In this document: positions 897-26,344 of the stretch, piece by piece
Layout of the letters: the number at the start of each line of letters is the position of its first letter
Numbering within the stretch: the first letter of the stretch is position 1
Program-made: the position numbers and the translations under genes
Virus record (IMG/VR): IMGVR_UViG_3300014913_000824
Coordinates: 1 to 29,369 of that record
Direction: 5' to 3' (one strand)
Source: a virus
DNA length: 29,369 nt
The notes under the pieces: model-generated
What the model saw: only the letters and a program-made list of their open reading frames with translations
What the model was told of the DNA's origin: nothing
Databases searched by the model: none

Positions 897-954
897 TTGG
901 CATGCTCCTTATGTGCACATTCCGCTATCAAAGCATAGTCCAGGAGGACTTTCC

Positions 955-6212: not shown

Positions 6213-7127
6213 ATGACACAGAAAAAGAAGCAAGAAGCGGAAGTGGGAAATGTTCTCCCTGAATCTATCTCCGTAAGTCAGGTGGTACTGCCCGATAAGT
6301 GGAATCGGGACAAAGCAGGTGATCTGAAAGGCCTGATCCGCTCAATCAAACAAGCTGGGCAGTTAGTGCCCATCGTTGTGCGGAAGGTGGGAAAAGACAA
6401 GTATGAAGTATCCGATGGACGCCGCAGACTCCTGGCACTAAAGGAGATTGGTGAGAAGACAGTACGTATTACTTCTGCTCAAGGTGCACCTGAGGATGAC
6501 TACATCAACAGCCTGGTGATCAACCTGCAACGTGCCGGACACAATCCCATGGAGAAAGCTCGGGTGTACCGAGAGCTCAGTGAGACTGGGATGCTGCACA
6601 AAGACATTGGGAAGAAGTGTGGCGATGTAACGGAAAGCTCCATCAGCCAGCACCTCGCATTCTTCGAGCTGCCGGCCAAGATGCAACGGGCATTGCGTGA
6701 CGCTAACATCACCCCCGGACACGCGCGCCAACTACTTCGGGCAAACGAGGAAGAAGACATGGCCTTCCAGGAGAAGCTGTACGATAAGATGTCCGCACAT
6801 GGGATGTCCGTATCTGACTCCGAGGAAGTGGTGGCACATTATGTACACCGTAAAGAAGAAAAGGCTCAGGCAAAAGCTGCCAAGTCAAAGAAGCCTACTG
6901 ACGGAAAACCTGCCAAGACAAAACCTGCACGTGCAGGAAGGAAGATTGCGGCTGTCAATTACGACGAGTACGACATTAAGCCTCCGGCAGAAAGCAAGAT
7001 TCGAGAGTATCTACGTACATACGACGACATGCGAACAAAGACTCGCAGTCCCCGGAAGCAAGCGCACTACAAAGATGTGTTGTTTGGGATGGAACTCGTT
7101 GCAGGTATTATAGAGTTCGAAGACTAG
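6213..7127 (+). CDS. parB: ParB/Spo0J-family DNA-binding protein
   Basis: This is a 304-residue ParB-like protein. The N-terminal ParB/sulfiredoxin-fold domain (about residues 15-110) includes SIKQAGQLVPIVVRKV and DGRRRLLALKEIG, which corresponds to the nucleotide-binding ERR box of CTP-dependent ParB. A KorB-type helix-turn-helix follows at about 130-190 (KDIGKKCGDVTESSISQHL, then ITPGHARQLLR). A Lys/Ala/Pro-rich linker (about 215-250) leads to a C-terminal domain. No ParA ATPase gene is adjacent, so a role in plasmid-like segregation is not assured; orphan phage ParB-like proteins can act in gene regulation or DNA organisation. AAGGA lies 7 bases before the ATG. The stop overlaps the convergent sigma factor stop by 4 bases. 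Confidence 0.88.
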   Translation: MTQKKKQEAEVGNVLPESISVSQVVLPDKWNRDKAGDLKGLIRSIKQAGQLVPIVVRKVGKDKYEVSDGRRRLLALKEIGEKTVRITSAQGAPEDDYINSLVINLQRAGHNPMEKARVYRELSETGMLHKDIGKKCGDVTESSISQHLAFFELPAKMQRALRDANITPGHARQLLRANEEEDMAFQEKLYDKMSAHGMSVSDSEEVVAHYVHRKEEKAQAKAAKSKKPTDGKPAKTKPARAGRKIAAVNYDEYDIKPPAESKIREYLRTYDDMRTKTRSPRKQAHYKDVLFGMELVAGIIEFED

Positions 7128-9383: not shown

Positions 9384-10226
9384 ATGCCTTTCGACATTAC
9401 CCCATCAGAAACAGTATTGAAGTATGCCCCTTGGTCACTAAGTAAGGCGAATACTGCTAAGGATTGTCCTCGCAAGTTCTACTTCAATTACGTCGTAAAG
9501 AAAAAAGGGGTAACCAACGCAGATGCTTTGGTAGGTCAAGCGACCCACTCTGCACTGGAGTTCGCATTGGAAGGGCGTCCCCCATTACGGGCCATTGAGT
9601 TTGCAATGGAAAAGTATCCGCTGACAACTAATGAGCAGGAACGGGTAATGGCGTTTCAGCCTGCAATTGAAAACTTCTTGCGAAGCTTCAAACACTACTG
9701 CACTCAGCATCACGCACAACCTCCGCAGTACGAACAGAAACTTGCAGTAGATATCAACGGAAAAGCCGTCGCTAACTTTTTTGATAATAAAAAAGTATTC
9801 TTGCGCGGCGTACTAGATATTGCAGTACTGTTTAAGCGCAAACCATACGCTTTGGTACTCGACCACAAGACAGGTAAAGACCGAGGACTACACTACTACG
9901 CACAGCAGTTTCTGATTTACCGTATTCTAATGAAAGCTCAGTACCCTAATCTGACCAAGATACTCTCAGGAATCAACTGGGTAAAAGCAGACCGTATTGA
10001 TCTGGGCGACTTTGTAGATACCCCTAACATCGAAGGCCCTATGGCGGCCTTTATTGAGTTCCTGAACGAATCAACCAAGGATCTCGGAGACCTCTCTGAG
10101 TACAGACAGAACCGACTATGCGATTGGTGTGACTACAAATCGCAGTGTCCTATGTTCAACCCGAAGGCAAGTGCCGATGTCATCGAAACAGAAGAAGACG
10201 AAAGGACTGACCTCCCAACAACTTAA
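9384..10226 (+). CDS. PD-(D/E)XK nuclease, Cas4/AddB-like (second copy)
   Basis: This 280-residue nuclease has the same architecture as the one at 3371 but little obvious identity outside motifs. C28 in AKDCPRKFYF and the C-terminal C246-x2-C249-x5-C255 (CDWCDYKSQC) form a Cas4/AddB-type 4Fe-4S site. Catalytic candidates are H55, D145 in LRGVLDIAV, D160-x-K162 in VLDHKTGK, and Q174 in QQFLIYR. GAGGAG is 6 bases before the ATG. The C-terminal acidic tail overlaps the start of the primase gene by 50 bases. It probably processes DNA ends for replication-linked recombination. Confidence 0.87.
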   Translation: MPFDITPSETVLKYAPWSLSKANTAKDCPRKFYFNYVVKKKGVTNADALVGQATHSALEFALEGRPPLRAIEFAMEKYPLTTNEQERVMAFQPAIENFLRSFKHYCTQHHAQPPQYEQKLAVDINGKAVANFFDNKKVFLRGVLDIAVLFKRKPYALVLDHKTGKDRGLHYYAQQFLIYRILMKAQYPNLTKILSGINWVKADRIDLGDFVDTPNIEGPMAAFIEFLNESTKDLGDLSEYRQNRLCDWCDYKSQCPMFNPKASADVIETEEDERTDLPTT

Positions 10227-13200
10227 ACGTATCTGGCAGCAGATAAGCGTTGACGACTGGCTCGAACTTTTTAGAGCGTACCTGCCACAAAATGGCTTTG
10301 CTCTACGTGCCAAAAATACGTTATTGGGTCGATGTCCGAATCCTGACCACGCAGACCAAACTCCTTCCTTCTGGCTATTTACAGGTCCAGACACAGGTGA
10401 TCGCTGTTACGGTACCTGTTTCGGGTGCGGCTTTTACACTAGGGACCCCATTGAACTAGTTTCAATGGCCCAAGGTGTCGGGAATACAGAGGCGCTGCAG
10501 TACCTTCAGGAAAGGTACGCACTCAGCTTCCTTCCCAAGAAGGCCGCAGCCGAGCTAGAAGCTCGACGTATGAATCAGCAGGTAAAGAACGCAATTTATA
10601 CTGCTGCAAAGTTCACTCTTGTGGACGCAATCGCAAATCCTAACGTGCATCCGTATGCAAAAGAAGGGACTGACTGGCTCCTTAACCACCGTAAGATAGA
10701 CAAAGGCTCTCTTGCACAACTGCCTGTAGGGCTTATGCCTCCTCTTTTAGACCTGCAGAAGACTCTGACAATGCAATACAAGCAGAGGCTCAAGAGTTGG
10801 AAAGCGAAAACAAGTGGTCCAAAACCGGAAGACTTAACGGACGCAGTAACCACGTACCTGGAAGCTACGTATAACAGTAGCAAGTACAATGGGTCGATTA
10901 TGTTCCCGCTACATACGAGCCCTCGTGACATAGGAAGGATAAAGCTCCGAGTCCCTACTACGGGAGAAAAAGAGATAGTCTTTCCAGCGGATGAGTACGA
11001 AGAGTACTTAGGGCTGTTCGGACTCGGCTGGGACCAGTACAGCGCTTTCTTTAAGAATGGGAAGCTGCCTGCTATCTATCTCGTAGAAGGTGAAATGGAC
11101 GCCCTGACAGTGATGGACCGCTTCTTACGTGCTGGAAAGATACAGTTCCCTATCGTATCCGCAGGAGGCTCCAGTAGCGTTTCGTACTTCGAGCCTATCC
11201 TACATGGCGCAGGCGTAGAGTCTGTCTACTTCGTAGGAGATAGTCCTATTGCAGGTAACGGTGACACAGTAATCCAAGGTTGGTTAGGGGGTATGAAGAA
11301 GCTCCCTACCCGCATCTTTGTAGGGTGGGATGCGCTGCAGCCAGCCACAGACATAGATGAAGCTGTACACGACCCTAAGATAGGCATGCCCAAAGTAGAA
11401 GAGGTGCTGTGGAAGAAGTCCGCACAGAACTTTGTGATGCCATGGAGCTGGGCCTTTGACAGGGCGCGGCAAGAGCTTGACGCAATGGACGCGGAAGACC
11501 ATCGCGCACACATCGAGAAAGCCTCAGAGCATGGTAGGTACTTAAAGCATAGACTCGATGAAGCGGCATACGTGAACGCCATCGCAAAAGCTTATGAGCA
11601 TATCCCTGAGCGTATTCTGAAGCTGGAGATAACTACCCGAGAAAATAACGCTCTAGGTTTTATCTATCGAATCAGAGAAGCTCTTGCTGACTTGTTTCAT
11701 GTTGTCGGCACTGAGGTAAAGAAAGGAGGTAGAGCTCTTGTTCTGTATCACAAAGAGAAACACCACTTTGTACGCATACTCCTAGATAGTGATACAGCTA
11801 TCGCAGGAGAGTTCGCACCTCTCGGGGGAATGTTATTGGAGTTCATCCAGAATAACGTAGGCTTCCCTTCTTTCCTGGAGCACCCGAACGACGCGGAAGG
11901 TGGCGCGCTACGCAATACTACCCTGGCTCTTCGTCTCTTTATGAAAGAGGCGATCAGTAGTCTGGCGCAAGGTGCTGTAGATATCGGGTATGCCGACAGG
12001 CGTACAGATGGTTTCCACTGGATAAGTGTGCAAGGAAATGCCCCACTTCAATACCTGGTAGTGAACAATGAGACCTTTCGTTTTGAGGGAGGCTCAGAGA
12101 CTTCTCCGTCTACCCCTGTAAAACTTCCTGCACCTGTAGATAACGACATCATCTTCGGACACTTGGAAGCTCTGAGTGCTAAGAAGAATTGGCTACCCGA
12201 AACTCCCACCGCGGAATCTCTCGTAGGAGCATCAAAAGAGGACCTGCTGGAGCTCTACAATAACTTGGTTGAATTTTACAGGTGTGGATTCCAATTCCAC
12301 GACCACGACAATACCTGTAGGTTATTAGCTGCTTCAGTGATGATGATGCCCGTAATGGATGCAATGTCCCGACCCCCTCTCTTTACAATCTTAGGTGCGA
12401 CAAGTTCAGGTAAATCCTCCCTCGTTGCCACCCTCGCTCATTCCCCTGAGAAAGAAGAAATCCAGATGCTGTACCACTCGGTAGCGTATTCTGGGAAGTA
12501 CACTGAAGCAGGTGTAACTCAGGCAGCGTTTGGTGACAGTAGACTTCGTGTCTTGGATGAATTCGAGTTAGACAGAGGTAACCATGTAGAAATACAAAAG
12601 CTGTATGACTTTTACAGGGCTTTTGTTAATGGTGAGGCTGAACGTCTGACTGGTTCTCCGGGAGGACGGCCCAATCAGGTGCACGTACGCCACGCAATTA
12701 TTCTCTCTTCAATCTCTACATCGGAAAGGCCTCAAGATAGAAATCGGTGGCTCGCAATTAATACTGTTTCTGTACCGCAACGGGATCCTTCTGAGATTTC
12801 TATCCTGAAAAAATTCAGTGCCGAGAAAATACGTAAGATGCGAAAGGTTCTCAACATGGGCGTATTTGCCCACGCACACGAGCTAAAGAAGGCGAGAGAG
12901 AGTATCAAGTATGAGTTCAACACTGCGCTTCGAATGGCGCTTCCTGTTCCTGTAGAAGCTAGATTCGCTGAGAACTTATTTGCGGCAGCAGCTATGTTGA
13001 AATTCCTGGGGATAGATTGGAAAGCTTTTATTGCGTCCTACGTGGACGGCAATGAACATACCTTCACAGACATAGAGGCTGTATCTGAATCCGACAGCAA
13101 ACTGAACCTGCTATTACGCGGTACTGGTATTTACGACCACGAGATGCGCCAGAAAACAAACGTGAGTATGCTGCTATTACAGAGTGACAAGCGTGAAGCT

Positions 13201-13599
13201 ATTAACAATTCAGCCTGCGGAGCATACTACGACGCACCTAAGAAACTACTGTTGTTCCTTCTCGATCAGGCGATCCCTCAGTTGATTCGCCCAGAGACTA
13301 TCAAGGAACAGAAAATCACACCTATGCGAATGCGGGAGATTCTCAAGCGCCACAAGAATGCGTTGTCTCCTGATGAAATACTACAGTCCGGTGTAATCAA
13401 TCGCGCTCAATCTTGTTTGGGAGCCGGGATCCAATTGGCAGACGTAAGCGTCTTCCAGGCGGACAGATGGTTGCAACCTTCAATCCACATAGCCCCTTCT
13501 CTTCCCAAGGAGGAGGAAGAAAAAGAAGCTCCACCTGTGGAACAGGAAGAGGAGGAGGAAGTAACAGATGACGACCTCACAAACAATTTCAAATGGTGA
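10177..13599 (+). CDS. Primase with C-terminal AAA+/helicase-like ATPase
   Basis: This 1140-residue replication protein has three recognisable parts. An N-terminal zinc finger of CHC2 type is at about residues 50-95 (CPNPDH, then CYGTCFGCGF). A TOPRIM catalytic core includes LVEGEMDALT (E304) and YFVGDSP (D355). A C-terminal P-loop ATPase has Walker A GATSSGKSS (740-748), Walker B RVLDEFELD and a sensor-like IILSSIST. It would make RNA primers and may unwind or load at forks. A region of about 350 residues between TOPRIM and ATPase is unassigned. The C-terminal tail is Glu-rich. The frame is open from 10129, but the ATG at 10177, with AAGG 9 bases upstream, reduces overlap with the nuclease and is preferred. 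It overlaps the polymerase gene by 32 bases. Confidence 0.88.
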   Translation: MSSKQKKTKGLTSQQLKRIWQQISVDDWLELFRAYLPQNGFALRAKNTLLGRCPNPDHADQTPSFWLFTGPDTGDRCYGTCFGCGFYTRDPIELVSMAQGVGNTEALQYLQERYALSFLPKKAAAELEARRMNQQVKNAIYTAAKFTLVDAIANPNVHPYAKEGTDWLLNHRKIDKGSLAQLPVGLMPPLLDLQKTLTMQYKQRLKSWKAKTSGPKPEDLTDAVTTYLEATYNSSKYNGSIMFPLHTSPRDIGRIKLRVPTTGEKEIVFPADEYEEYLGLFGLGWDQYSAFFKNGKLPAIYLVEGEMDALTVMDRFLRAGKIQFPIVSAGGSSSVSYFEPILHGAGVESVYFVGDSPIAGNGDTVIQGWLGGMKKLPTRIFVGWDALQPATDIDEAVHDPKIGMPKVEEVLWKKSAQNFVMPWSWAFDRARQELDAMDAEDHRAHIEKASEHGRYLKHRLDEAAYVNAIAKAYEHIPERILKLEITTRENNALGFIYRIREALADLFHVVGTEVKKGGRALVLYHKEKHHFVRILLDSDTAIAGEFAPLGGMLLEFIQNNVGFPSFLEHPNDAEGGALRNTTLALRLFMKEAISSLAQGAVDIGYADRRTDGFHWISVQGNAPLQYLVVNNETFRFEGGSETSPSTPVKLPAPVDNDIIFGHLEALSAKKNWLPETPTAESLVGASKEDLLELYNNLVEFYRCGFQFHDHDNTCRLLAASVMMMPVMDAMSRPPLFTILGATSSGKSSLVATLAHSPEKEEIQMLYHSVAYSGKYTEAGVTQAAFGDSRLRVLDEFELDRGNHVEIQKLYDFYRAFVNGEAERLTGSPGGRPNQVHVRHAIILSSISTSERPQDRNRWLAINTVSVPQRDPSEISILKKFSAEKIRKMRKVLNMGVFAHAHELKKARESIKYEFNTALRMALPVPVEARFAENLFAAAAMLKFLGIDWKAFIASYVDGNEHTFTDIEAVSESDSKLNLLLRGTGIYDHEMRQKTNVSMLLLQSDKREAINNSACGAYYDAPKKLLLFLLDQAIPQLIRPETIKEQKITPMRMREILKRHKNALSPDEILQSGVINRAQSCLGAGIQLADVSVFQADRWLQPSIHIAPSLPKEEEEKEAPPVEQEEEEEVTDDDLTNNFKW

Positions 13600-16500
13600 G
13601 CCGGACATTGAATGTGGGCTTTGCGCTGAAGACGCATGGAACGGCTCGCGCTGTGCGAGTTGCCCTCTAAGTAGAAAGCGACACTATACCCGAGGAATTG
13701 GTGCCGACCTACACTCCGCAGACTTCTTTGTCGTAGCAGAATCTCCGCACATCCTGGGACCATCCGGAAGCATGGATAACCATTCCGGATGGAACCTGGA
13801 TACGGAGAAGCTGGTACTTAATCTAGTGTCCGACTACAAAAAGAGAATGCGCGGAGATCACGCTGAACTCGAAGGGAGATACACTTACGCCGTAAGGTGC
13901 ATAGAAGATAAGCCCAAGAAGAAAATAATCGACTGCTGTTCTACACTCTTCCATACTGAGCTTACGGAATACGCCGTAGAGCACCGGCCTATTATGGTCT
14001 TTGCTTTAGGCCCGGCAGTGCTCAAATCGTTGGGAGTTAAGTACGGTAAATACAATGACATCCAGGGAAAGTTTCTTGAGGTTACAATACAAGGACGCAG
14101 AGTACTCGTATACCCCTCACTCTCTAAGCGGCAACTGGCCTCAAAAGCAGGGTACGTTGACGTGACAAAGAGGCACCTCGGTAATTTTCTGGATGGTGCT
14201 GTAGGCAACAAGAACGGGCATACGGTGGCTACTGAGGTAAGCATGCCGCAGCTCACTGAAGAGTATGAGTTTCCTCGGACCCCTGCTGAAGTAGAAGACC
14301 TCGCGCTACACATCATTAACTATGCACGTCCAGGAGAAGACCCTGCAGGGGCGATGCTGTCTATCGATACGGAAACGAATACGCTTTTTCCCCATAGGCC
14401 TAAGCTGAAAATGCTTAGTGTAGTGGCCGCATGGGATAAAGGTAAAGCGTGCTCTATTCCATTCGAACACCCTGATACACCTTGGGACCCTGGGGAAGTA
14501 CGCCAATCAATCTGGAAGATACTAACTTGCAATAAGCCTAAAGTAGGACACAACTTCAAATTCGACATCAAAGTACTTGAGCGAAAAGGGTTCAAGGTTA
14601 GACAGGCACGTTGGGACACCATGCTGGGAGAACATCTCCTGGAAGAAGACAAGAAGGGATACTACAGTCTGAAGCATCTTACCAAGCTGATGCTCCCACG
14701 GTACGCAGGGTACGAGGATCAGCTGCACGACATTCTGACCCTTCTGGAAGCTCCTACACAAGTACTGCAATTGAAACAAGAAGAAGAGAACGTGCCTCCT
14801 GTTGTTCCTAAGTCCAAATTGAAAGGAGCCGCAAAGAAACTGGCGCAAGACATAGGGTATCTGCACATCCCCCTGAAGGAACTGAACGAGTACGGCGCAA
14901 TAGATGCAGACGTGACACGTCAGTTAGCGGGAATGCAGCGTAAGCGCATGCTTATTGAGCAGAAACACATAGTAAAAAGGCGTAATGAATATCTGCGAAT
15001 GCCGAACGCCTACTTCCGAGCTATTGGCCAGCCGGGCACAACTGAAAGCGCTCCTCTAGAACACCTGATGCAGCACCACTGTATTCCAGCGACCAAGACA
15101 TTGGCGCAAATGGAGTCAATTGGTATGCGTGTGAATCGGGAGTACGTAGATGATTTGCTTATAGATATGGATCAATCCTTACGGGAGTCCCGACAGGAAC
15201 TCAACCAGATGATTCCTCCTGGGATCACTTTCAACGGGGAGCCTTTCAATCCTGGGAGTGCTCCAAATATCCGTAAGGTACTTTTCGGTACAGGCTACCT
15301 TCACCCCAAAACTAAGGAGACTATTTGTTATAAGGGAATCATAGACCCTCCTACGACTGCCACAGGCCTGGTATCTACTAACCAGGCATTCTTGCGTAGC
15401 ATCCTTGTGCAGCACGAGTGTCCTTTTGCAGCTGCTATTCTCTCCTTCCGCGCTACGAGTAAAGCGCGCAATACTTTCGTGGCTAACATCCACGCCCTAA
15501 GTGCAGAAGACGGACGTATGCACACCTCTTTCCATATCGCAGGCGCTTCGACGGGACGTTTGTGTGTTTCAGGGGACACTCTTCTGGAAACTACCTCAGG
15601 AACGTTTAGAATCTCAAAACTCGACTTAGTTAGCTTTCCAAATGCACAGATACTGACACACAAGAATCGTCTGCGGAGAATACTGAATGTATTCTACAAG
15701 GGAAAAGAGCAGATGTACCGCGTTGTACTTGAGAGTGGAGAACAAATTGACGTCACGAAAGGACATCGGTTCTTTACTCCCTCAGGAGTACAGCATCTTT
15801 CTGATCTCACTATCGGAGCACAGGTTACATCCATAAAAAGTGGTCGAAAAAATCCGTTCTGCTCTAGCCCAATCGTAGACATCAGCCCCATAGGTGTAAA
15901 AGAGGTTTGGGACATCGAGGTAGAAGAAGACCACTCTTTTGTCGCCCAGGGGTATGTCAACCATAACTCATCGTCCGACGAGAACATGCAAAATGTTCCG
16001 CACAGGATACGGAATCACAACCTCAAACAAATATTTATCCCTACGCACCCAGACAAGGAGGTAATAGGAAACGCAGACGCTAAGGCTGCAGAGGTACGGG
16101 TATACGCCGCTTACAGCGGAGATGCCAACCTGATCAAAGCCCTCAACGATGGAATGGATCCACATAGCTTCTTTGCCTCAATGGTCTACAGCCCTGACGT
16201 AATTCTAAAAGGGATACCTTCTGATCTGAAACATGAAACACTTGCGACTGTAGGCATTGATGATATTCATAGCTGGAGCTACGCGGACTTCCAGAACAGA
16301 GACAATTTCTCAGGCACAGATACGGCCTACGGCTCACGCCTAAATTCTCTGCGAAAAACTATCAAGCGTGTGGTCTTCGGCATTCTATATGGAGCTTCAC
16401 GTAGGAAGATCTCACAGATCGTAGGCATTCCTCCTGCACAGGCAGAGGTTATTATCCGCGCATTGTTCAGTATGTTCCCGACAATAGAGAAGTACATCAG

Positions 16501-16990
16501 GCGGACAGAAGAGCAGGTCAAGCTTCTCGGAATGGTAGAGACCTTCTTCGGTCGCAGACGACGCTTTGACCTGAAAAGACTTACGTACTCCATGCGCAGC
16601 AAAGCTAACCGCCAAGCAGTCAACTTCAAAATCCAAAGCACTTCATCTGACATGGTACTCAATGTGATGTGTAAGATGGAAGAGCCTCTCAGACGGGACT
16701 TCAGAGGCAGGATGCTAATCACAGTGCATGACTCTGTCGTGTTCGAGCTTCCTAAGGAATACGTATCTCAGATGCCTGACTTCGTACAGGATTACGGGGT
16801 AAAGCAGGTAGCGGAACGTTTCCCTTGGATGCCCGTACCGTTTGAGTGGGATGTAGAAGTAGGTCCAAGCTACGGAGAACTTACTTCCGTAGAGAACTAT
16901 CTGAACGATAATCCAGAGTATATCCAGGGAGATGCCGACGAGCACCTGGAGCAGGATATCCGAAGTGAGTTTATAGATATAGGTAATTGA
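13568..16990 (+). CDS. polA: Family A DNA polymerase with N-terminal UDG-like domain and intein
   Basis: This is the phage replicative polymerase, 1140 residues before splicing and 1005 after. Residues 15-205 resemble family 4 uracil-DNA glycosylase: C16/C19/C29/C32, VRC111, CC123-124, and the FALGPAVLKSLG helix. The HPS motif expected near 182 reads YPS, so glycosylase activity is doubtful. A DnaQ-like 3'-5' exonuclease follows: D267-x-E269, VGHNFKFDIKVL and YGAIDADVT. The polymerase domain has motif A around D837 (NADAKAAEVRVYAAYSGD), motif B TIKRVVFGILYGAS, and motif C VHDSV (H1054, D1055). The intein separates GRL from SSSDENMQNVP just before motif A. SPO1-like phages are known to carry UDG-like domains on their polymerases. 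GGAGG lies 9 bases before the ATG, and the gene is coupled to the primase gene. Confidence 0.93.
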   Translation: MTTSQTISNGEPDIECGLCAEDAWNGSRCASCPLSRKRHYTRGIGADLHSADFFVVAESPHILGPSGSMDNHSGWNLDTEKLVLNLVSDYKKRMRGDHAELEGRYTYAVRCIEDKPKKKIIDCCSTLFHTELTEYAVEHRPIMVFALGPAVLKSLGVKYGKYNDIQGKFLEVTIQGRRVLVYPSLSKRQLASKAGYVDVTKRHLGNFLDGAVGNKNGHTVATEVSMPQLTEEYEFPRTPAEVEDLALHIINYARPGEDPAGAMLSIDTETNTLFPHRPKLKMLSVVAAWDKGKACSIPFEHPDTPWDPGEVRQSIWKILTCNKPKVGHNFKFDIKVLERKGFKVRQARWDTMLGEHLLEEDKKGYYSLKHLTKLMLPRYAGYEDQLHDILTLLEAPTQVLQLKQEEENVPPVVPKSKLKGAAKKLAQDIGYLHIPLKELNEYGAIDADVTRQLAGMQRKRMLIEQKHIVKRRNEYLRMPNAYFRAIGQPGTTESAPLEHLMQHHCIPATKTLAQMESIGMRVNREYVDDLLIDMDQSLRESRQELNQMIPPGITFNGEPFNPGSAPNIRKVLFGTGYLHPKTKETICYKGIIDPPTTATGLVSTNQAFLRSILVQHECPFAAAILSFRATSKARNTFVANIHALSAEDGRMHTSFHIAGASTGRLCVSGDTLLETTSGTFRISKLDLVSFPNAQILTHKNRLRRILNVFYKGKEQMYRVVLESGEQIDVTKGHRFFTPSGVQHLSDLTIGAQVTSIKSGRKNPFCSSPIVDISPIGVKEVWDIEVEEDHSFVAQGYVNHNSSSDENMQNVPHRIRNHNLKQIFIPTHPDKEVIGNADAKAAEVRVYAAYSGDANLIKALNDGMDPHSFFASMVYSPDVILKGIPSDLKHETLATVGIDDIHSWSYADFQNRDNFSGTDTAYGSRLNSLRKTIKRVVFGILYGASRRKISQIVGIPPAQAEVIIRALFSMFPTIEKYIRRTEEQVKLLGMVETFFGRRRRFDLKRLTYSMRSKANRQAVNFKIQSTSSDMVLNVMCKMEEPLRRDFRGRMLITVHDSVVFELPKEYVSQMPDFVQDYGVKQVAERFPWMPVPFEWDVEVGPSYGELTSVENYLNDNPEYIQGDADEHLEQDIRSEFIDIGN
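15563..15967 (+). other. Mini-intein (Hint domain only) in the DNA polymerase
   Basis: The insert runs from C666 to N800 of the precursor (135 residues). Block A is CVSGDTLLET. Block B is VTKGHRFFT, with the T730-x2-H733 pair. Block F is VWDIEVEEDHSFVAQGYVNH, followed by the terminal N800. The next extein residue is S801. All residues needed for standard Cys-initiated, Asn-terminated splicing are present. About 60 residues separate blocks B and F with no LAGLIDADG or HNH motif, so no homing endonuclease is encoded. Removing it restores the family A signature GRLSSSDENMQNVP, which supports both boundaries. Insertion beside the nucleotide-binding core is typical of inteins, which favour invariant sites. 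Confidence 0.93.
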
Positions 16991-18761: not shown

Positions 18762-20015
18762 ATGGCAAGAAAAGAAGCGAAAGAAACATTGTCCTACGCC
18801 GAGAGATACGACATCCCTTCGGGGAACATCAGCGAGATCAAAGAACAACTCAAGTTCGCCATGGAGCACAAAGCATTCAGAGGAGTGTGGTGCCTCGTTG
18901 GGGAAGCGGGTATGGGGAAGTCCCAAATCGTGCACCAGGTAGCCGAGGAGATGGGTGCGACTGTATGTGACGTGCGGACAGCACACTTCGGACTGATGGG
19001 AACGGGAATACCGTCCGTGAAAGATGCCAAGGGAGAGAACTTCTTCAAGATCAAACTTCCAGAAATCTTTCCAGGGGAAAACGAAAAGGTAATCTTAAAC
19101 TTTGACGAGCTGAACCAGGGTCAAGCGCACGCGATATCTATGTTCTTCTCAATGATCGAAGATAGGAAGATGTTCGATTACATGCTTCCGAAGGATACTC
19201 TAGTAGTGGCAACCATGAATCCGAATACGGAGCAGTACGCCGTAACGCAGATCGAAAACAACGCCGCACTTCGTCGCCGATTGAAATTCGTGTATGTAAT
19301 CCCGAGTGCCAAAGAGTTTCTCAAGCATGCGGCATCGGAGAACTTCCACTCCACGGACGTGGATATCGAGGCTCTCGGAGGAAGAAAGCCTTGCCATCCG
19401 GCTATTCTCGAGTATTTCGAAACGAAGCCTACCGAGATCGACAACAAGAGGGCAAGAGAGTCGAACAAATCCTATGTATGTCCTGCAACTATCCAAACAA
19501 TCTCAATGAACGCGTACCTCCTTGAGCAAGAAAAGATTCCTCTAGAAGGAAGCTTTGCCTATCTGATGTTTGCCTCGAGCATCGGGCAGGCCTCAGCATC
19601 AAGCATCTCAGCGTTCATGAAGGATAGCGCTACAGCTATCAACCCCCTGGACGTGTTAGAGCGTTATTCTAAGGTGAAGAAGAAGGTGGACAAGCTCATA
19701 TCTAGCTCCAACAACGAAGTATTGATGGAGCTGAATATGAATGTACTGAGCATTCTGTTCAGCAAATGTCCTGCCAACATCACACGAACTGCGAAGAACT
19801 TTGTGAAGTTCATCGTGGATCAGCCCACGGAGAATACAGGCTCAATAATGTACTCGATTCGCAAGGTAGCTGAAGACAACGGGTCGGAAGATTACCTGAA
19901 GGATCTGATGCGGGAGATGTACCAACATGACGAGTGGGTGGAAGCCCATAAGAACATGGACGAAGCGCACAGAGCTGTGGATCAGGATTTCCGATCAGGT
20001 AAGGCGAAAGCCTAG
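18762..20015 (+). CDS. MoxR-type AAA+ ATPase
   Basis: This 417-residue ATPase has Walker A GEAGMGKS (47-54), Walker B ILNFDELNQ (D115, E116), sensor 1 VVATMNP and a downstream NNAALRRRLKFVYV arginine-finger segment, all typical of the MoxR branch. MoxR proteins work as chaperone-like remodelers with VWA-domain partners, and such a partner is encoded at 21818. AGGAGG at 18751-18756 lies 5 bases before the ATG. Two minus-strand genes separate it from the VWA gene. The 3' end overlaps the convergent gene at 19995 by 21 bases. The substrate is unknown; assembly or remodelling of a replication or virion complex is possible. Confidence 0.9.
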   Translation: MARKEAKETLSYAERYDIPSGNISEIKEQLKFAMEHKAFRGVWCLVGEAGMGKSQIVHQVAEEMGATVCDVRTAHFGLMGTGIPSVKDAKGENFFKIKLPEIFPGENEKVILNFDELNQGQAHAISMFFSMIEDRKMFDYMLPKDTLVVATMNPNTEQYAVTQIENNAALRRRLKFVYVIPSAKEFLKHAASENFHSTDVDIEALGGRKPCHPAILEYFETKPTEIDNKRARESNKSYVCPATIQTISMNAYLLEQEKIPLEGSFAYLMFASSIGQASASSISAFMKDSATAINPLDVLERYSKVKKKVDKLISSSNNEVLMELNMNVLSILFSKCPANITRTAKNFVKFIVDQPTENTGSIMYSIRKVAEDNGSEDYLKDLMREMYQHDEWVEAHKNMDEAHRAVDQDFRSGKAKA

Positions 20016-20747
20016 CAGCTCCTCAGCTAAATCTTCCGACCGCTCCCGAACATAAAGATAGCAAATTGCCAACTTGGTAAGCTGTACGTCTACCGGTGTC
20101 TCCGAGAAAGTAGTACTCTCGAGCCGGTTTTGATTTACAGCTTTCCAAGCTTTGGCGACATCTTTTTTCATCGGTGCAGTATCCACAGGATACAAGCTGG
20201 TCAGCGCATCAGTAGAATAGCGGAGAGGCTTTGGAGGGTAAATACATCCCGCACGCTTCAACACTACAGCTGTAAACATCTGTACGTCCTCGTCGAACTC
20301 CGGGATCATCTCTGGATCATCAGGGTCTAGCCCTCGGATTATTCCAGCCTCATAAACTGCCCAGCACATGTGGCTTATCGCAGGCTCCTGAAGTGCTTCA
20401 GGATCGAAAGGCTGGTCGTTAAGTGCCTGTACAGTCTGTTGGAATACAATGCTGTCCCAGTAGAAAGAGGGATTCAGAACCAAGGTAATAGCAGCTTGCA
20501 ACTTGTTGCGGGCCTCTTCTTCCCATATGTAGCCGTCCCCTTCGAAGGTCTGCCACATAGTCTCCGGTTCCCAAGTGAGGATGTCCAGACTGTATACAGT
20601 CCTGGCTGCCATGTACAACGCAGCAGCCGTATGGTTGTCGGGAGCCTTCATCAATTGTTCGGCATACTCCTCCTGTGCTGCGGTCTTCGTAAGCTTCCGC
20701 TGCATGGTAGGGATATGCGATACAAGTTTATCTACGGGTTCGTACAT
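19995..20747 (-). CDS. Hypothetical protein of the packaging/virion block
   Basis: This 250-residue soluble protein has no recognised domain. It is rich in Tyr, Trp, Asp and Pro and appears mainly alpha-helical. No signal peptide, membrane segment or catalytic motif is visible. Its ATG overlaps the stop of the gene upstream (TAATG), so the two are translationally coupled. Both lie on the minus strand, between the terminase and the three putative virion genes to the right, which suggests a head, tail or connector component. That role is inferred from position only. Confidence 0.7.
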   Translation of the reverse strand: MYEPVDKLVSHIPTMQRKLTKTAAQEEYAEQLMKAPDNHTAAALYMAARTVYSLDILTWEPETMWQTFEGDGYIWEEEARNKLQAAITLVLNPSFYWDSIVFQQTVQALNDQPFDPEALQEPAISHMCWAVYEAGIIRGLDPDDPEMIPEFDEDVQMFTAVVLKRAGCIYPPKPLRYSTDALTSLYPVDTAPMKKDVAKAWKAVNQNRLESTTFSETPVDVQLTKLAICYLYVRERSEDLAEELLGFRLT

Positions 20748-21757
20748 TACTTTTTATAAGGCTTTAGCTGTGTGACCAAAGTGGTCTTCACATCCTGAGG
20801 AAGAGTCATGATCACTTCGCTCAACTTGTCGGGACTCACCTCTCCGTCAGTTGTGATCTCGGACACCACATCATCTCCTAAAGCATCTTTCCAGAACGTA
20901 ACGGGGATCCCACCCAGCAATGTCTTATCAAAAAACTCACCGTTAATCTGGACTTGTTCCGAGGCCAGTTTCTCTGTGTTGAATACACTACGGAGAGGAT
21001 CTGGGACTCCTTTTGCATAGTACGCATCTACCCCCGACTGTTTGTCGAGACCTTCCAGTAGTCTTGCTACCTTCACCTGCTCTACCGTTTCTGCAATGTA
21101 CGGGTCCCGTTTCTGTAGTTCTTTTTCCAGCATACTATATGCAGGTGCCACCTCTGATCCAAGCTTAGTCGCAACGGAGCACCTTGCAGCCACATAGTCC
21201 TGCAGACGCCTGGTGCTTGTCATAGTGAAGCTGCCCAGCTTATGGGTGAGGGGGCGTAACTCTACGGCGTATCGCGCAGCAACCTTCACCAGATTACGCA
21301 TGGCAGTAGCACGGTCTGCTATATCCAGCTCATTGTAGCGGGAATGAAGGGCTTCCTCTGCGTACCCAACATCTGCGGCCTCCTTAATCCTGAAACGGCT
21401 TTTCTCAGGGAGAAGCCACTCCTCATTAGATGCTTCTTTCTCGAGTTGAAGGGGGGCCTCAAACGCAGAGGTGTCGATGTCGTAAGCGTCTACTGCAGTG
21501 TCCAGCCGTTCAGTTACATCTGAAGGAAGGGCGCTTGCATGCTTACTGTAGCCGTACGAAATGATCGCATGCTCACGATTGTGGATAGGGAACTGTCGGC
21601 GTCCAGGCCACGCAAACGCATGGTCCGGCAGGTCACTGAGTTCCTGTACTCCCAGCTCTGCTTCTTTAGTCATCTCCCGCATGTGAGGATACTCATCCAA
21701 AACAACCCGAAGCAGCGCATGGCCGGCGTCATTCGTCTGGTCGATAATTTTATGCAT
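20747..21757 (-). CDS. Hypothetical protein with AFAWP/FPIH motif
   Basis: This 336-residue protein begins MHKIIDQTND. The ATG at 21757 follows AAGGA by 6 bases, so upstream ATGs are rejected. A segment near residue 45 (LPDHAFAWPGRRQFPIHNRE, then HAI) resembles a short module found in phage capsid-maturation proteins, in which AFA, an Arg and a Pro-Ile-x-His-like segment precede a helix. The same region is followed by a helical array and a C-terminal domain. A link to prohead maturation or a virion role is inferred from this resemblance and from coupling to the gene at 19995, not from an identified active site. Confidence 0.7.
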   Translation of the reverse strand: MHKIIDQTNDAGHALLRVVLDEYPHMREMTKEAELGVQELSDLPDHAFAWPGRRQFPIHNREHAIISYGYSKHASALPSDVTERLDTAVDAYDIDTSAFEAPLQLEKEASNEEWLLPEKSRFRIKEAADVGYAEEALHSRYNELDIADRATAMRNLVKVAARYAVELRPLTHKLGSFTMTSTRRLQDYVAARCSVATKLGSEVAPAYSMLEKELQKRDPYIAETVEQVKVARLLEGLDKQSGVDAYYAKGVPDPLRSVFNTEKLASEQVQINGEFFDKTLLGGIPVTFWKDALGDDVVSEITTDGEVSPDKLSEVIMTLPQDVKTTLVTQLKPYKK

Positions 21758-21817
21758 CTTTAGTCCTTCATCCATTTTCAGTGAAACAACAAGAATTATA
21801 GACGAGGAAGTAAAAAA

Positions 21818-23368
21818 ATGAAAACTCAAAATGCTCTAAGCGAAGTCCTTCAGTGGGCTTGTAGCCCGAGAGGAGGAAACAACCTCTACGGGAGGATCTT
21901 GAACGGCTGTAGCCGTAAGCCTACACCAGGGCTTGGAACGGCTGCAGTGGCCCTGACCCCACAAGGGAAATACCTATTCCTATACGACCTGGAATGGTTT
22001 ACGGCTCAGCCAAGAGCGTTCCAAGTGTTGGTAGTTGTGCACGAAGCTGCGCACTTGGTCCTGGAACACATACCGAGAGTGTTTCGGTACATGGTACACT
22101 TTGATGACCATAAGCAGTACAAGCGATACGAGCCCATCTTCAACATCGCCATGGATATGGCAGTGAATGACGTGGCGCTACGCCCATTTGTGGAGCAGAA
22201 TCGCGATTACTTTGGAGACGTGGCTAAGCCTCTGGTTTGGCCTGAGCAAAGGGACTACCCCAAGAACAAAACATTCGAAGAGTACACCGCGCTCCTTATT
22301 GAAGATCTACAAGAGCACGGCTTCGACGTAGATGCCTATCGGATAGGAGAATTCAAAGGCGCACAAAGTAGTCCTGATGCGGGAGGTTCCGGTGATTCCG
22401 GTGATTCTGAGGAGGAGAAAGAGTCAAAGGGTTCTGGAGGCTCTGACGAAGAGAAAGAAGAGAAAGAGGAGAAGGCTCCTCAGAACGTAAGCGAACAGAT
22501 GATGCAAGACGAGAGCGTCCCGTCATGGTTCCGGGATCTATTGAGACAGCAGGCTCCGGGCCACATATCCCACCTGGATATAGTCGAGGGTATGACCGAG
22601 TCCGAGATCGAACGAGCTATTGAGCAGGCTAAGCGTGAAGGAAAGCGCATAGTCAATTCTGCGGTAGAGCAGACACACAAAGGCCGGGGTGTTATCCCTG
22701 GGCATCTGCAGCACCTGATAGACGCGCTACTGGAAGAACCTACGATTCCGTGGGAAGTAGTACTGCGTGGGATGCTCAAGTCATCCATATCGGCAAAGCT
22801 TCGTGAGAGCACCGTTATGCCCAACGCAGGGCTCGCGCACCTGGAAGCGGACCTCATAGAGCCTTACCCCTTCTACCAGCGAGACATGACGTTCCACATT
22901 GATCTGTGCGTAGATACCTCCGGGTCAGTTTCGGATACTGAGTATATACAGTTCATGGGAGAGATTGCAGGCATACTGCGCGCAGAAGAAGGAGTATCCG
23001 CCCGCTTCATCGCATTCGATCATGCTATCCAGCAAGAGGAGCTACTCTCCTCCGATAGCAGCGCCTTTACCGACTCTCCCGAAGGGATGCGCCGTTACGG
23101 GTACGGAGGAACACAATTCAATTCAGTACTTAGGCGGGTATTGGGAACAGATACAGAGGACGATTGGCTGGAAGATGCAGACAGGATAACCGAGAGGGTA
23201 CCTACTGCGGATCTGGTGATTATATTCACCGATGGGTATGCCCCGATATCCTCAGATAAAGGCGGTCCTATTCCAGAACTGTCACCTCCGGCCCCTCTCA
23301 TATGGGCAATTACCCCTTCAGGGAAAACACATCCTGACATGGTAAGAACACTCCAGATAGGAGGGTGA
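21818..23368 (+). CDS. Metallopeptidase-like (HExxH) protein with VWA domain
   Basis: This 516-residue protein has the architecture of DUF2201-type proteins: an N-terminal metallopeptidase-like domain and a C-terminal von Willebrand A domain. H75-E-A-A-H79 lies in VVVHEAAHLVLEH, and the nearby MDMAVND helix is typical of this group. The VWA MIDAS site is D366-x-S368-x-S370 (DTSGSVSD), with a later FTDGYAP segment. A low-complexity Glu/Ser/Gly/Lys linker (about 185-225) joins the halves. Proteins of this kind are usually encoded with MoxR ATPases, and one is at 18762. GAGGA lies 9 bases before the ATG. It begins a tightly packed operon that continues with the RT gene. Whether it is an active protease cannot be said. 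Confidence 0.88.
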   Translation: MKTQNALSEVLQWACSPRGGNNLYGRILNGCSRKPTPGLGTAAVALTPQGKYLFLYDLEWFTAQPRAFQVLVVVHEAAHLVLEHIPRVFRYMVHFDDHKQYKRYEPIFNIAMDMAVNDVALRPFVEQNRDYFGDVAKPLVWPEQRDYPKNKTFEEYTALLIEDLQEHGFDVDAYRIGEFKGAQSSPDAGGSGDSGDSEEEKESKGSGGSDEEKEEKEEKAPQNVSEQMMQDESVPSWFRDLLRQQAPGHISHLDIVEGMTESEIERAIEQAKREGKRIVNSAVEQTHKGRGVIPGHLQHLIDALLEEPTIPWEVVLRGMLKSSISAKLRESTVMPNAGLAHLEADLIEPYPFYQRDMTFHIDLCVDTSGSVSDTEYIQFMGEIAGILRAEEGVSARFIAFDHAIQQEELLSSDSSAFTDSPEGMRRYGYGGTQFNSVLRRVLGTDTEDDWLEDADRITERVPTADLVIIFTDGYAPISSDKGGPIPELSPPAPLIWAITPSGKTHPDMVRTLQIGG

Positions 23369-23371
23369 TCC

Positions 23372-23953
23372 ATGACAACAATCTACTGCGTAAAAATACG
23401 CCGTAAACTGCTCAAGTCATTACGGAGAGTATTGTCCGACTCCTTCCACGTCTTTCCGTATGACAGGGTGTACCTTGTACCGAAAACGAAAGTACACGTA
23501 ATTCCTCGGATGTTTCCCTACTGCCTCGAGATGCCCCTCACGATACCCCTCCTAGACGCACTGAACCAAGTTCACGTGGAGTACGTGCGGAAAGTACCGC
23601 TGCACCGAGATAGCAGCACAGAAACTGCTACGCCCACTAAGACATACAACTTTTTCGAAGGTGGAAAGTATACCGACTGGAGCGGCTGGGCGATGGTCGT
23701 ACCTACTCAAATAAAGCAGCATTGCCGTCCGGAAAACATACGAAACGTAGGCGTCAAACATCTCCAGTACGTTCACAGCGGAGCAATGCGCCCCTACGCC
23801 AATACGCGTGCAGAGATGCCATCGATAAAACTGCATACTCCAGAGCGTACTATCGCACTACTCTGCGCAGTGTGTGATCACATTTTAGAATATCAGGCAG
23901 GAAAATGCGTTCCTGGAACTGGAAAATGTGAACAGCAAGGGGGCGCAAGATGA
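23372..23953 (+). CDS. Hypothetical Cys-motif protein, RT-operon partner 1
   Basis: The family of this 193-residue protein is not recognised. The N-terminal 60 residues are basic and hydrophobic (VKIRRKLLKSLRRVL), and the middle has aromatic clusters (YNFFEGGKYTDWSGWAMVVP). The C-terminus carries C165-x2-C168-x10-C179-x6-C186, a probable metal site just before a Gly/Gln tail. GGAGGG precedes the ATG by 6 bases. It starts 3 bases after the VWA gene and overlaps the RT gene by 4 bases (ATGA), so co-translation with the RT is likely. It occupies the position where a retron would place its non-coding RNA. Confidence 0.65.
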   Translation: MTTIYCVKIRRKLLKSLRRVLSDSFHVFPYDRVYLVPKTKVHVIPRMFPYCLEMPLTIPLLDALNQVHVEYVRKVPLHRDSSTETATPTKTYNFFEGGKYTDWSGWAMVVPTQIKQHCRPENIRNVGVKHLQYVHSGAMRPYANTRAEMPSIKLHTPERTIALLCAVCDHILEYQAGKCVPGTGKCEQQGGAR

Positions 23954-25089
23954 CACACGGGTTCTCTAACACAGAAGTCGTCATGATTAAAACACCTGAT
24001 ATCCCGGAAGACATGCCCTTTCTGATCGACGACTGCACTCTGGCTTTTTTCCTGGGCTTTAATACCAGGATTCTCTGGTACGCAATCACGCGCAAAGACG
24101 AACTGTATACTCGACTAACAATCCCTAAAAAGTCTGGAGGTAGCAGGGTAATACATGCTCCCGATAAGGTGATGAAACTTTTCGGAAAGAGGATCCTCGA
24201 GCGCCTTCTCAATCCTCTTCAGAAACAGCTAGGGGACCACGTAACCGCTTATCGTGAAGGGCGCTCAACGCAAATGGCAGTGGAACAGCATGTCCCTGAG
24301 TGCCCTATCTGCGATACAGCTCCTCCGGGAACGGAACATGACTGCCCGCACAGAGGCACATACTTCAATCTCGACCTGAAGAACTTCTTCCCCAGTACAC
24401 GCAGAGTATGGATACGCCAGTACTTCAAGCAGGTGATCGGGTACAGCCATTACGTATCTGATCTCCTGGCGTCCCTGGTCACAGTCTACGCGTTCACAGA
24501 TTCTTCCGGCTACCAGTTCTCAGGGGTACCGCAAGGTAACCCTGCCAGCGGTGCTATCTGCAATTTAGTTGCGGACTGGATGCTAGATACTCCGATGCTC
24601 GCACTCATAGATGACCTGAATAAAGAACAGGGTCTGGAAGGAGAATACGCATGGAAATACACGCGATACGCCGATGACCTGGCATTCACTTGTGGCAAGA
24701 GGTTCTCTTACTACAAAAGAATGGCAATTCTTAACAAGCTGATGAACGTGTGTACTCGCAGCGGTTACGCCGTAAACCACACCAAAACCCGCATATGGGA
24801 TGGACGCCACCGTAAGGCATTGCTGGGAGCGGTGTTTAACACCCATACGAATATCCCAAGAGATCAGTACATCTCTGTCAGATCCTTAACCTACAACTGC
24901 TGGAAGCACGGCTTTGAATCCCAATGTTCCAGAGCAGGCAAAGACTCAGAAGAAGAGCTGCGTTGGTGGCTCTTAGGGCGAATAAACTACATGGAACAAA
25001 TACATTCCGGCAAAGGACAGCAGCTTAAGTCTGTGTACAACGCTGCAGTGCAGAAATATGACAAAAACAAAACGCATCCAACAGCTTAA
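23950..25089 (+). CDS. Retron-like reverse transcriptase with Cys/His insertion
   Basis: This is a 379-residue RNA-directed DNA polymerase. The fingers start at LTIPKKSGGSRVIHAP (about 56-71). AYREGRSTQMAVEQH (100-114) fits the region X position of retron RTs. The palm has NLDLKNFFPST (D142), GVPQGNPAS (192-200) and RYADDLAFT (YADD 240-243). LLGAVFN (291-297) sits where retron RTs have VTG. Between region X and the first catalytic Asp is an insertion CPICDTAPPGTEHDCPH (118-134) that could bind zinc. The QGNPAS sequence and YADD argue against a diversity-generating retroelement. AAGGGG lies 6 bases before the ATG. The gene overlaps both neighbours, so no msr-msd locus fits directly beside it. 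Confidence 0.9.
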   Translation: MTHGFSNTEVVMIKTPDIPEDMPFLIDDCTLAFFLGFNTRILWYAITRKDELYTRLTIPKKSGGSRVIHAPDKVMKLFGKRILERLLNPLQKQLGDHVTAYREGRSTQMAVEQHVPECPICDTAPPGTEHDCPHRGTYFNLDLKNFFPSTRRVWIRQYFKQVIGYSHYVSDLLASLVTVYAFTDSSGYQFSGVPQGNPASGAICNLVADWMLDTPMLALIDDLNKEQGLEGEYAWKYTRYADDLAFTCGKRFSYYKRMAILNKLMNVCTRSGYAVNHTKTRIWDGRHRKALLGAVFNTHTNIPRDQYISVRSLTYNCWKHGFESQCSRAGKDSEEELRWWLLGRINYMEQIHSGKGQQLKSVYNAAVQKYDKNKTHPTA

Positions 25090-26344
25090 CCGTGTATTCA
25101 CCTATGCAGTAGGTCCATCAGGAAACACTGAGCTTCTATTCTCATCACTTGACCCTGAAGATAACATACTGTCTCCGGAGACCTTTGAGCTAATACAAAA
25201 CACTGCGTTGGTGCACAAGCTTGTAGGGCATCCCAACATCGTATACAGCCACGATATCCCAGTACCTCATCCTGTGATTCGCGTTACGTCTGAGACAGAC
25301 GGTTACCTGGCCCGACAATTATCTACGGCAAAGAGGGGGGACTGTATCTACATTAACGGCAGCCCATCAGAGATGGAGCACGTAGACCTTTCTCAGACAT
25401 ACGATTCGTGCTCTCTTCCACACAAATACGCCCTAGGATGCCATGAGTGCATCCGCCTTAAGGCCGATGAGGTACCGGCGATGTGTAGGATTAGGGAGCT
25501 ACTGACCACTCCCCGTGAGTACGGGTACCGCGCAGAAGAGGACCTGCTGGACGTCCTGGAACATCTTGAAACTACGATAGGACCATTCACATACATAAGT
25601 CCTGCGCATACGCGGACAGCGTACTTTACCCAGAACGACCGTCCGATAAACCAGCACAGCTTCGCTAATGTATCCGAGAACCTCGAGTCCGCAGCGAAAG
25701 GAGGAAGAGAAGCTCATCGGGTAATTAAATTCAAGAAGACAGAATGTTCACGGTGCCTAGTACAGTCCGTCTGTGACACAGAAGTGAAGTGGTGCCCTTC
25801 GCCTTACCTCAAATCTGAAAAGGAGTACAGTGCTGCGTCAGTAGCGAAAACACATATACCTTTTACCCGTGCGCAGATTAAATATCTGCTCATTAACAGC
25901 GGCCGCCTCCACGCCAGGTACAACCGCAGGCTATACGCACTTACGTTCCACCTAGAGTCACCTGACCAGACGCTCCAATTCGGTCTCCGGAGGACCACTG
26001 CAAGCTGGTTTAATTTCACACCTTTCAAAACGTTCAAAGAAGCAGAAAGGGTAATCCAGTCTCACGGCTACGACAGGAAGTGGGACGATGACCGCTACGG
26101 GAAACTGACCAACCTGCAACTAGGTATTCTACTGGCAGCCGCCAGGGAAACGTACAGCCCAACCAACCAAAATGGGTGGAGAACTACGAGCTACCCTAAG
26201 CACTACCTCGAAGGACACCCTCGCGCAGGGTACACACTGAGATATGCGAGAGGGAGAGAAGGACATCTTCCCTGGAACACCATCATCCAAAGCTGGGAAG
26301 GTCTCTACCTAAATTGGGGGAGATTCGACCACTCAATCCGCTAA
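25058..26344 (+). CDS. Hypothetical Cys-rich protein, RT-operon partner 2
   Basis: This 428-residue protein has no recognised family. Two cysteine groups are visible: C118, C128, C131 and C143 (the last three C-x2-C-x11-C), then C230-x2-C233-x5-C239-x6-C246, close in spacing to the clusters of the helicase at 955. The C-terminal third is basic and aromatic (RLHARYNRRLYALTF, RYARGREGHLPWN), consistent with nucleic-acid binding. It overlaps the RT gene by 32 bases and has no clear Shine-Dalgarno, so translation may depend on that of the RT. Its stop meets the convergent virion gene at 26341. Confidence 0.65.
   Translation: MTKTKRIQQLNRVFTYAVGPSGNTELLFSSLDPEDNILSPETFELIQNTALVHKLVGHPNIVYSHDIPVPHPVIRVTSETDGYLARQLSTAKRGDCIYINGSPSEMEHVDLSQTYDSCSLPHKYALGCHECIRLKADEVPAMCRIRELLTTPREYGYRAEEDLLDVLEHLETTIGPFTYISPAHTRTAYFTQNDRPINQHSFANVSENLESAAKGGREAHRVIKFKKTECSRCLVQSVCDTEVKWCPSPYLKSEKEYSAASVAKTHIPFTRAQIKYLLINSGRLHARYNRRLYALTFHLESPDQTLQFGLRRTTASWFNFTPFKTFKEAERVIQSHGYDRKWDDDRYGKLTNLQLGILLAAARETYSPTNQNGWRTTSYPKHYLEGHPRAGYTLRYARGREGHLPWNTIIQSWEGLYLNWGRFDHSIR

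What the first reader, a model, noticed from the sequence alone, without database searches (positions are those of the whole stretch)
21818..26344. Four-gene operon coupling a VWA/HExxH protein, a retron-like RT and two Cys-rich partners
Seen: VWA gene, 3-base gap, Cys-motif gene, 4-base overlap, RT, 32-base overlap, Cys-rich gene. Known: retrons normally have an msr-msd RNA next to the RT, and MoxR/VWA pairs act as remodelers. Inference: an RT that uses a template other than an adjacent ncRNA, working with two metal-binding proteins, possibly as a defence, counter-defence or DNA-repair module of the phage.
Basis: partly seen in the sequence, partly recalled or inferred. Interest (0 to 1): 0.75.

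Follow-up and report, generated by a model that had tools for sequence, protein, structure and literature searches.

The report
Phage reverse transcriptase with cysteine-rich partners
A group of large, uncultured bacterial viruses carries a compact three-gene set around a reverse transcriptase that descends from the retron (bacterial defence) enzymes but has lost their signature motifs and shows no RNA gene beside it, and that comes with two previously undescribed cysteine-rich proteins; its job is unknown and testable.

Summary
The operon is real and old. About 30 distinct large phages (contigs up to 195 kb) have this RT, nearly all as g2-RT-g4 between the same core genes. In other relatives the trio is absent as a whole (whole contigs searched), either replaced after the VWA gene or missing together with VWA. 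The RT nests within retron RTs (PDB profile match to Ec67 6e-43) but forms its own clade (99/92), separate from type XIII retrons. All examined sequences have lost the N of NAxxH and the VTG triplet, while the sister retrons keep both. There is no adjacent spacer for an msr-msd, no conserved RNA element embedded in the genes, and no DGR repeat pair. g2 and g4 carry invariant Cys sets and match no family or fold. MoxR-VWA is a known phage pair, proposed for virion assembly, separable from the trio. Best reading: a retron-lineage RT domesticated as a phage function, two metal-binding proteins probably standing in for the retron RNA. The anatomy is shown; the mechanism is inference. Defence is unsupported; DGR and missing-primase roles are disfavoured.

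The parts
21818..23368 (+). VWA protein with N-terminal HExxH metallopeptidase domain (DUF2201_N + DUF2201; phrog_1314)
   Evidence: HExxH and MIDAS invariant in 14 relatives
22040..22054 (+). HExxH motif (residues 75-79)
23372..23953 (+). g2: 193 aa, new family, C-terminal CxxC-x10-C-x6-C
   Evidence: no useful Pfam, PHROG, PADLOC, NCBIfam or PDB match
23864..23929 (+). g2 invariant Cys4 (C165, C168, C179, C186)
   Evidence: 22 sequences
23950..25089 (+). RT: retron-lineage reverse transcriptase, 379 aa
24274..24291 (+). retron region X position: MAVEQH instead of NAxxH
24301..24345 (+). CxxC...HxC insert in the RT, present in part of the clade
24373..24375 (+). motif A catalytic Asp (D142)
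24667..24678 (+). motif C YADD
24820..24828 (+). LLG in place of the retron VTG triplet
25058..26344 (+). g4: 428 aa, new family with two Cys4 sets
   Evidence: no useful family or fold match
25409..25486 (+). g4 first Cys set (C118, C128, C131, C143)
   Evidence: C118, C131, C143 invariant; C128 in most
25745..25795 (+). g4 second Cys set (C230, C233, C239, C246; CxxCx5Cx6C)
   Evidence: invariant in 19
18762..20015 (+). MoxR-type AAA+ ATPase, partner of the VWA protein (phrog_1297)
   Evidence: order conserved
20747..21763 (-). m338, homologue of a protein annotated structural in Salmonella phage Arash; lies between MoxR and VWA
19995..20747 (-). m250, core gene between MoxR and VWA

Best explanation
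g2-RT-g4 is a co-inherited cassette of a lineage of large tailed phages. Its RT comes from within the retron RT radiation but has been domesticated: it keeps the polymerase motifs and has lost the two retron-specific motifs and the adjacent msr-msd. Shown: the anatomy, co-occurrence of the trio, purifying selection, loss of motifs, absence of an adjacent or embedded conserved RNA, invariant Cys sets. Inferred: g2 and g4 bind zinc or an iron-sulphur cluster, form a complex with the RT, and give it the template or primer choice that the msr RNA gives a retron. Inferred: the RT makes DNA on a phage or host RNA (or on phage DNA ends) as part of phage genome metabolism or packaging, since the cassette sits between the primase/PolA/terminase block and later core genes including structural homologues and RuvC. 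Inferred: the MoxR-VWA-metallopeptidase pair is an AAA+ assembly or remodelling machine that may act on this complex or on the virion.
For: Order conserved in all 24 main-clade loci with RT identity down to 30%. Inserts of 60 bp or more fall at VWA-g2 in 8 loci and after g4 in 4, but at g2-RT in only 1 of 25 and at RT-g4 in none. The trio is present together in 26 m338-selected loci (in two, a partner is cut off or missed by the profile) and wholly absent in 10 relatives searched over their whole contigs, 4 of which keep VWA. RT clade 99/92, its sister keeping NAxxH, VTG and space for upstream RNA. N of NAxxH and VTG lost in all sequences examined. No spacer, no suppressed synonymous window, no Rfam hit, no intergenic element shared by three related genomes. 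Invariant Cys.
Against: No biochemical evidence of any kind. Whole core gene order is collinear in these phages, so synteny alone overstates coupling, and the presence/absence pattern rests on about two phylogenetic events. In the distant relative G020 the RT lies next to terminase, away from VWA and a g2-like gene, with no g4 detected. Some genuine retrons also lack VTG or the N of NAxxH (PMC6868368, PMC4244168). AlphaFold models of g2 and g4 are only moderate (pLDDT 73-75) and match nothing, so metal binding is read from Cys alone.
Confidence: 0.45

Rival explanations
1. It is a divergent retron: an msr-msd RNA lies in trans elsewhere in the genome or hidden in coding sequence, msDNA is made, and g2/g4 are its effectors, excluding rival phages.
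For: RT sequence is closest to retron RTs; the sister lineage looks like genuine retrons; VTG is present in only 47% of retron/retron-like RTs in one survey (PMC4244168).
Against: Both retron motifs lost in all sequences; no room beside the RT, no synonymous-site suppression in VWA, g2, RT or g4; no conserved intergenic element among G013, G014, G016; no Rfam hit; position in the core, not in a variable island.
Confidence: 0.2
2. The RT is an Abi/DRT-like enzyme that makes template-free or protein-primed DNA to block rival phages or host defence.
For: RTs working without a template RNA are known (AbiK, DRT1: PMC8934634, PMC13275509); the cassette lacks an adjacent RNA.
Against: Profile similarity to DRT and AbiK is far weaker (1e-6 to 6e-5) than to retron RTs (1e-42); the cassette is in the conserved core.
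Confidence: 0.15
3. RT, g2/g4 and MoxR-VWA are unrelated genes that stay together only because core gene order is frozen in this phage group.
For: Flanking structural genes are equally collinear; in G020 the RT is separate from VWA.
Against: g2, RT and g4 are absent together in ten whole contigs, four of which keep VWA; overlaps and lack of inserts mark g2-RT-g4 as one unit.
Confidence: 0.15
4. The RT is a diversity-generating retroelement with distant template and variable repeats.
For: Phages use DGRs for receptor switching (BPP-1).
Against: No A-biased TR/VR pair in G001, G002 and the probably complete G016, while the same search finds the BPP-1 pair; motif B is mostly QGxPxSG, not the IGSLTSQ of BPP-1 Brt.
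Confidence: 0.03

Closest known systems
Retrons, nearest named type XIII (PADLOC RT_XIII)
   Same: Same RT lineage, YADD motif, RT encoded with accessory proteins
   Different: 158-236 bits in clade members tested against 431-613 for type XIII RTs; no N-terminal extension; NAxxH and VTG lost; no adjacent ncRNA; partners match no PADLOC family
Phage-borne retron RTs of L041, L044, L064 (sister lineage)
   Same: Nearest relatives in the tree (91/90), on viral contigs, linked to Cys clusters (here fused at the RT N-terminus)
   Different: Keep NAxxH and VTG and have 0.7-1.5 kb upstream with strongly structured RNA in two of three; no g2 or g4
MoxR-VWA(metallopeptidase) pair of jumbo phages and N4-like phages
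   Same: Same two families; PMC7824862 proposes a virion-assembly chaperone
   Different: Here joined to an RT and two Cys-rich proteins
AbiK / DRT reverse transcriptases
   Same: RTs some of which act without a template RNA
   Different: Only remote sequence similarity; known ones act in bacterial defence
Diversity-generating retroelements
   Same: RT in a tailed phage
   Different: No TR/VR found, different motif B

Membership tests
Retron | RT of the retron lineage | tested here: met
   (but below the curated NCBIfam retron cut-offs)
Retron | NAxxH in region X | tested here: not met
   N lost in every sequence, H kept in all but the L256/L258/L259 branch
Retron | VTG triplet opening region Y | tested here: not met
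   xLG in every sequence that covers the site; but VTG is not universal in retron-like RTs (PMC4244168)
Retron | msr-msd RNA next to the RT | tested here: not met
   g2 and RT overlap or lie within 4 nt in 24 of 25 loci; no conserved element
Retron | msDNA product | not testable with these tools
   needs RT-DNA sequencing
Retron type XIII | RT inside the type XIII clade | tested here: not met
   separate clade, far lower score
Diversity-generating retroelement | TR/VR repeat pair with A-specific differences | tested here: not met
   (positive control found)
Group II intron RT | maturase-type RT over family cut-off | tested here: not met
   60 bits against a cut-off of 300; PDB profile 2e-18 against 6e-43 for retron
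Abi/DRT | RT over Drt family cut-offs | tested here: not met
   Drt2 21.6 bits against 390, Drt3a 17.2 against 200
MoxR-VWA phage chaperone pair | AAA+ and VWA with HExxH metallopeptidase domain in linked genes | tested here: met
   PMC7824862
MoxR-VWA phage chaperone pair | acts in virion assembly | not testable with these tools
   a proposal in PMC7824862

The most novel reading that the evidence does not exclude
A core phage machine in which a retron-derived reverse transcriptase takes its template and primer from two metal-binding proteins, not from a dedicated RNA, and makes DNA needed for replication or packaging: a normal-life-cycle role for reverse transcription in double-stranded DNA phages, outside defence and receptor switching.
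Probability: 0.3. Interest if true: 0.87.

Novelty: new variant of a known kind. Interest (0 to 1): 0.68.

Why it matters
Known functions of bacterial and phage RTs are mostly defence (retrons, Abi, DRT), CRISPR adaptation, mobility and receptor diversification. An RT kept through deep divergence in the core of large phages, with the retron RNA apparently gone and two new Cys-rich families in its place, would show how a retron RT can change its template source and would give reverse transcription a housekeeping role in a DNA virus. The sister retrons that keep the motifs and have room for an upstream RNA make the change testable.

Tried and rejected
DGR: no TR/VR in three main-clade contigs, positive control passed. 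RT as the missing primase: a DnaG-type zinc ribbon or Toprim match in an ORF of about 1100-1190 aa (upstream of PolA where mapped), or a Prim-Pol, is found in 8 of 9 genomes searched; only the 78.7-kb G001 rang for neither; DnaB was not found in any. Embedded RNA: no window of suppressed synonymous change. RNA in trans: no intergenic element shared by G013, G014 and G016; Rfam empty. g2 as DciA: 1 of 22 members, 23 residues. g4 as WhiB-like or transposase: E 3 and scattered hits. Homology of g2/g4 with the Cys N-terminus of the sister RTs: hhalign E 0.13-0.15, not significant. Foldseek of g2 (PDB) and g4 (PDB and viral): nothing at E 0.001. Literature searches found no description of this RT group; the library lacks most subscription papers.

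Full report
What is there. The window is a 29,369-base virus record. From the terminase start to the gene after g4 the only non-coding stretches are about 55 bases before VWA and 3 bases before g2. The same virus is the 78,677-base contig IMGVR_UViG_3300014914_000004. The VWA protein has a DUF2201_N metallopeptidase domain and a VWA domain; the upstream AAA+ gene 18762-20015 is its MoxR partner. This pair is known: a review of jumbo phages describes it, with the peptidase fusion, and proposes virion assembly (PMC7824862); an N4-like phage carries it next to helicase and polymerase genes.

How widespread. A scan with the RT alignment gave some 24 related loci on contigs up to 195 kb, with RT identity down to 30%. 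All carry Term(-), MoxR, m250(-), m338(-), VWA, g2, RT, g4, m351(-) in that order as far as each contig reaches. A second scan with the structural gene m338 found 56 loci, including phages without the cassette. Together about 30 distinct viruses have the RT (34 distinct sequences, some from the same virus). Nearest cultured relatives by terminase are Salmonella phage Arash and Vibrio phages D181, D148 and D69, at 28-30% identity. Arash has m250 and m338 homologues, the latter annotated structural, but no MoxR, VWA, RT, g2 or g4 in the 51 kb examined. One member, G016, has a 123-base identical repeat at both ends and is probably complete at about 179.8 kb.

Which genes belong together. Inserts of 60 bp or more occur between VWA and g2 in 8 loci and after g4 in 4, but between g2 and RT in 1 of 25 and between RT and g4 in none. 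In four contigs (G021-G024) MoxR and VWA are followed by an unrelated 383-400-aa gene, with no RT, g2 or g4 anywhere on the contig. In others (G025-G027) MoxR and VWA-g2-RT-g4 are missing from both sides of m250-m338, and no VWA, RT, g2 or g4 is found elsewhere on the contig. On the terminase tree these states need only two changes, so the evidence is consistent but few events deep; and since all core genes are collinear, order alone proves little. The exception is G020: its RT is next to terminase, while MoxR, m250, m338, VWA and a g2-like gene lie more than 10 kb away.

What the RT is. By profile it matches retron RTs first (Ec67 6e-43, Ec86 2e-42), then group II (2e-18), DRT (1e-6) and AbiK (6e-5). 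PADLOC places it nearest type XIII, with 158-236 bits in main-clade members tested against 431-613 for type XIII RTs. In a maximum-likelihood tree the 21 phage RTs are one clade (99/92), sister (91/90) to three RTs on other viral contigs and apart from the type XIII group (95/95). The retron motifs NAxxH and VTG (defined in PMC6868368) are lost in all of them, while the sisters keep both. VTG loss alone would not exclude a retron, since it is found in 47% of one retron-like set (PMC4244168). Motif B ends in SG in most members, where retrons have SP.

Where an RNA could be. g2 and RT overlap or lie within 4 bases in 24 of 25 loci. Fourfold-degenerate sites show no conserved window in VWA, g2, RT or g4. 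Rfam finds nothing in the whole G001 contig. No intergenic element is shared by G013, G014 and G016. Two of the three sister RTs, by contrast, have strongly structured upstream stretches (z -5.7 and -8.6). An RNA in trans with little sequence conservation is not excluded.

The partners. g2 has an invariant C-terminal Cys4 (22 sequences). g4 has seven invariant Cys and an eighth in most, in two sets (19 sequences). Neither matches Pfam, PHROGs, PADLOC, NCBIfam or PDB usefully. AlphaFold models (pLDDT 72.9 and 74.6) have no fold match. Part of the RT clade also carries a CxxC...HxC insert.

Likely working. Shown: a selected, co-inherited g2-RT-g4 unit with polymerase motifs kept and no retron hallmarks beyond RT descent. 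Inferred: g2 and g4 are metal-binding partners that give the RT its template or primer, and the product serves phage DNA metabolism or packaging, given the setting between primase/PolA/terminase and later core genes. The RT is unlikely to replace a primase, since a DnaG-type or Prim-Pol primase was found in 8 of 9 genomes searched; it is not a DGR by the repeat test.

Verdict. A new variant of the retron-lineage RTs with two new partner families, in a core rather than defence setting. Function remains open; interest 0.68.

Noticed in passing
L041:7617-8909, L044:7638-8987, L064:7644-9029: Sister RTs on viral contigs keep NAxxH and VTG, have an N-terminal extension with two CxxCx5C-type clusters and 0.7-1.5 kb upstream with strong RNA structure in two of three: probable genuine phage-borne retrons of an unnamed type.
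   Followed up: partly
L256:5624-6724, L258:5804-6910, L259:518-1507 (minus strand): RTs of one branch have YSDN instead of YADD at the active site.
   Followed up: no
L231:5974-7152, L239:5754-6956, L242:6201-7352 (minus strand): A 383-400-aa protein takes the place of g2-RT-g4 after VWA in relatives (no Pfam match in the two tested).
   Followed up: no
window 13568-16990: DNA polymerase A with a probable intein (Intein_splicing at residues 705-800, below the Pfam cut-off); the L006 orthologue is about 120 aa shorter.
   Followed up: no
window 10129-13599: 1156-aa ORF upstream of PolA without Pfam match; its position corresponds to ORFs with a DnaG zinc ribbon in related genomes.
   Followed up: partly
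window 913-2997, 3371-4222, 4219-5424, 6213-7127, 9384-10226: SNF2-type helicase, two PD-(D/E)XK nucleases, an amidase with peptidoglycan-binding domain, and a ParB-like protein.
   Followed up: no
L091 (QMZE01000001.1): The 78,677-base phage contig is deposited as part of an Archaeoglobales MAG (isolate name points to Guaymas); likely mis-binned or a clue to the host.
   Followed up: no
L193:3055-3825, 3806-4372 (minus strand): In G020 two further cysteine-containing genes without Pfam match follow the g2-like gene after VWA.
   Followed up: partly
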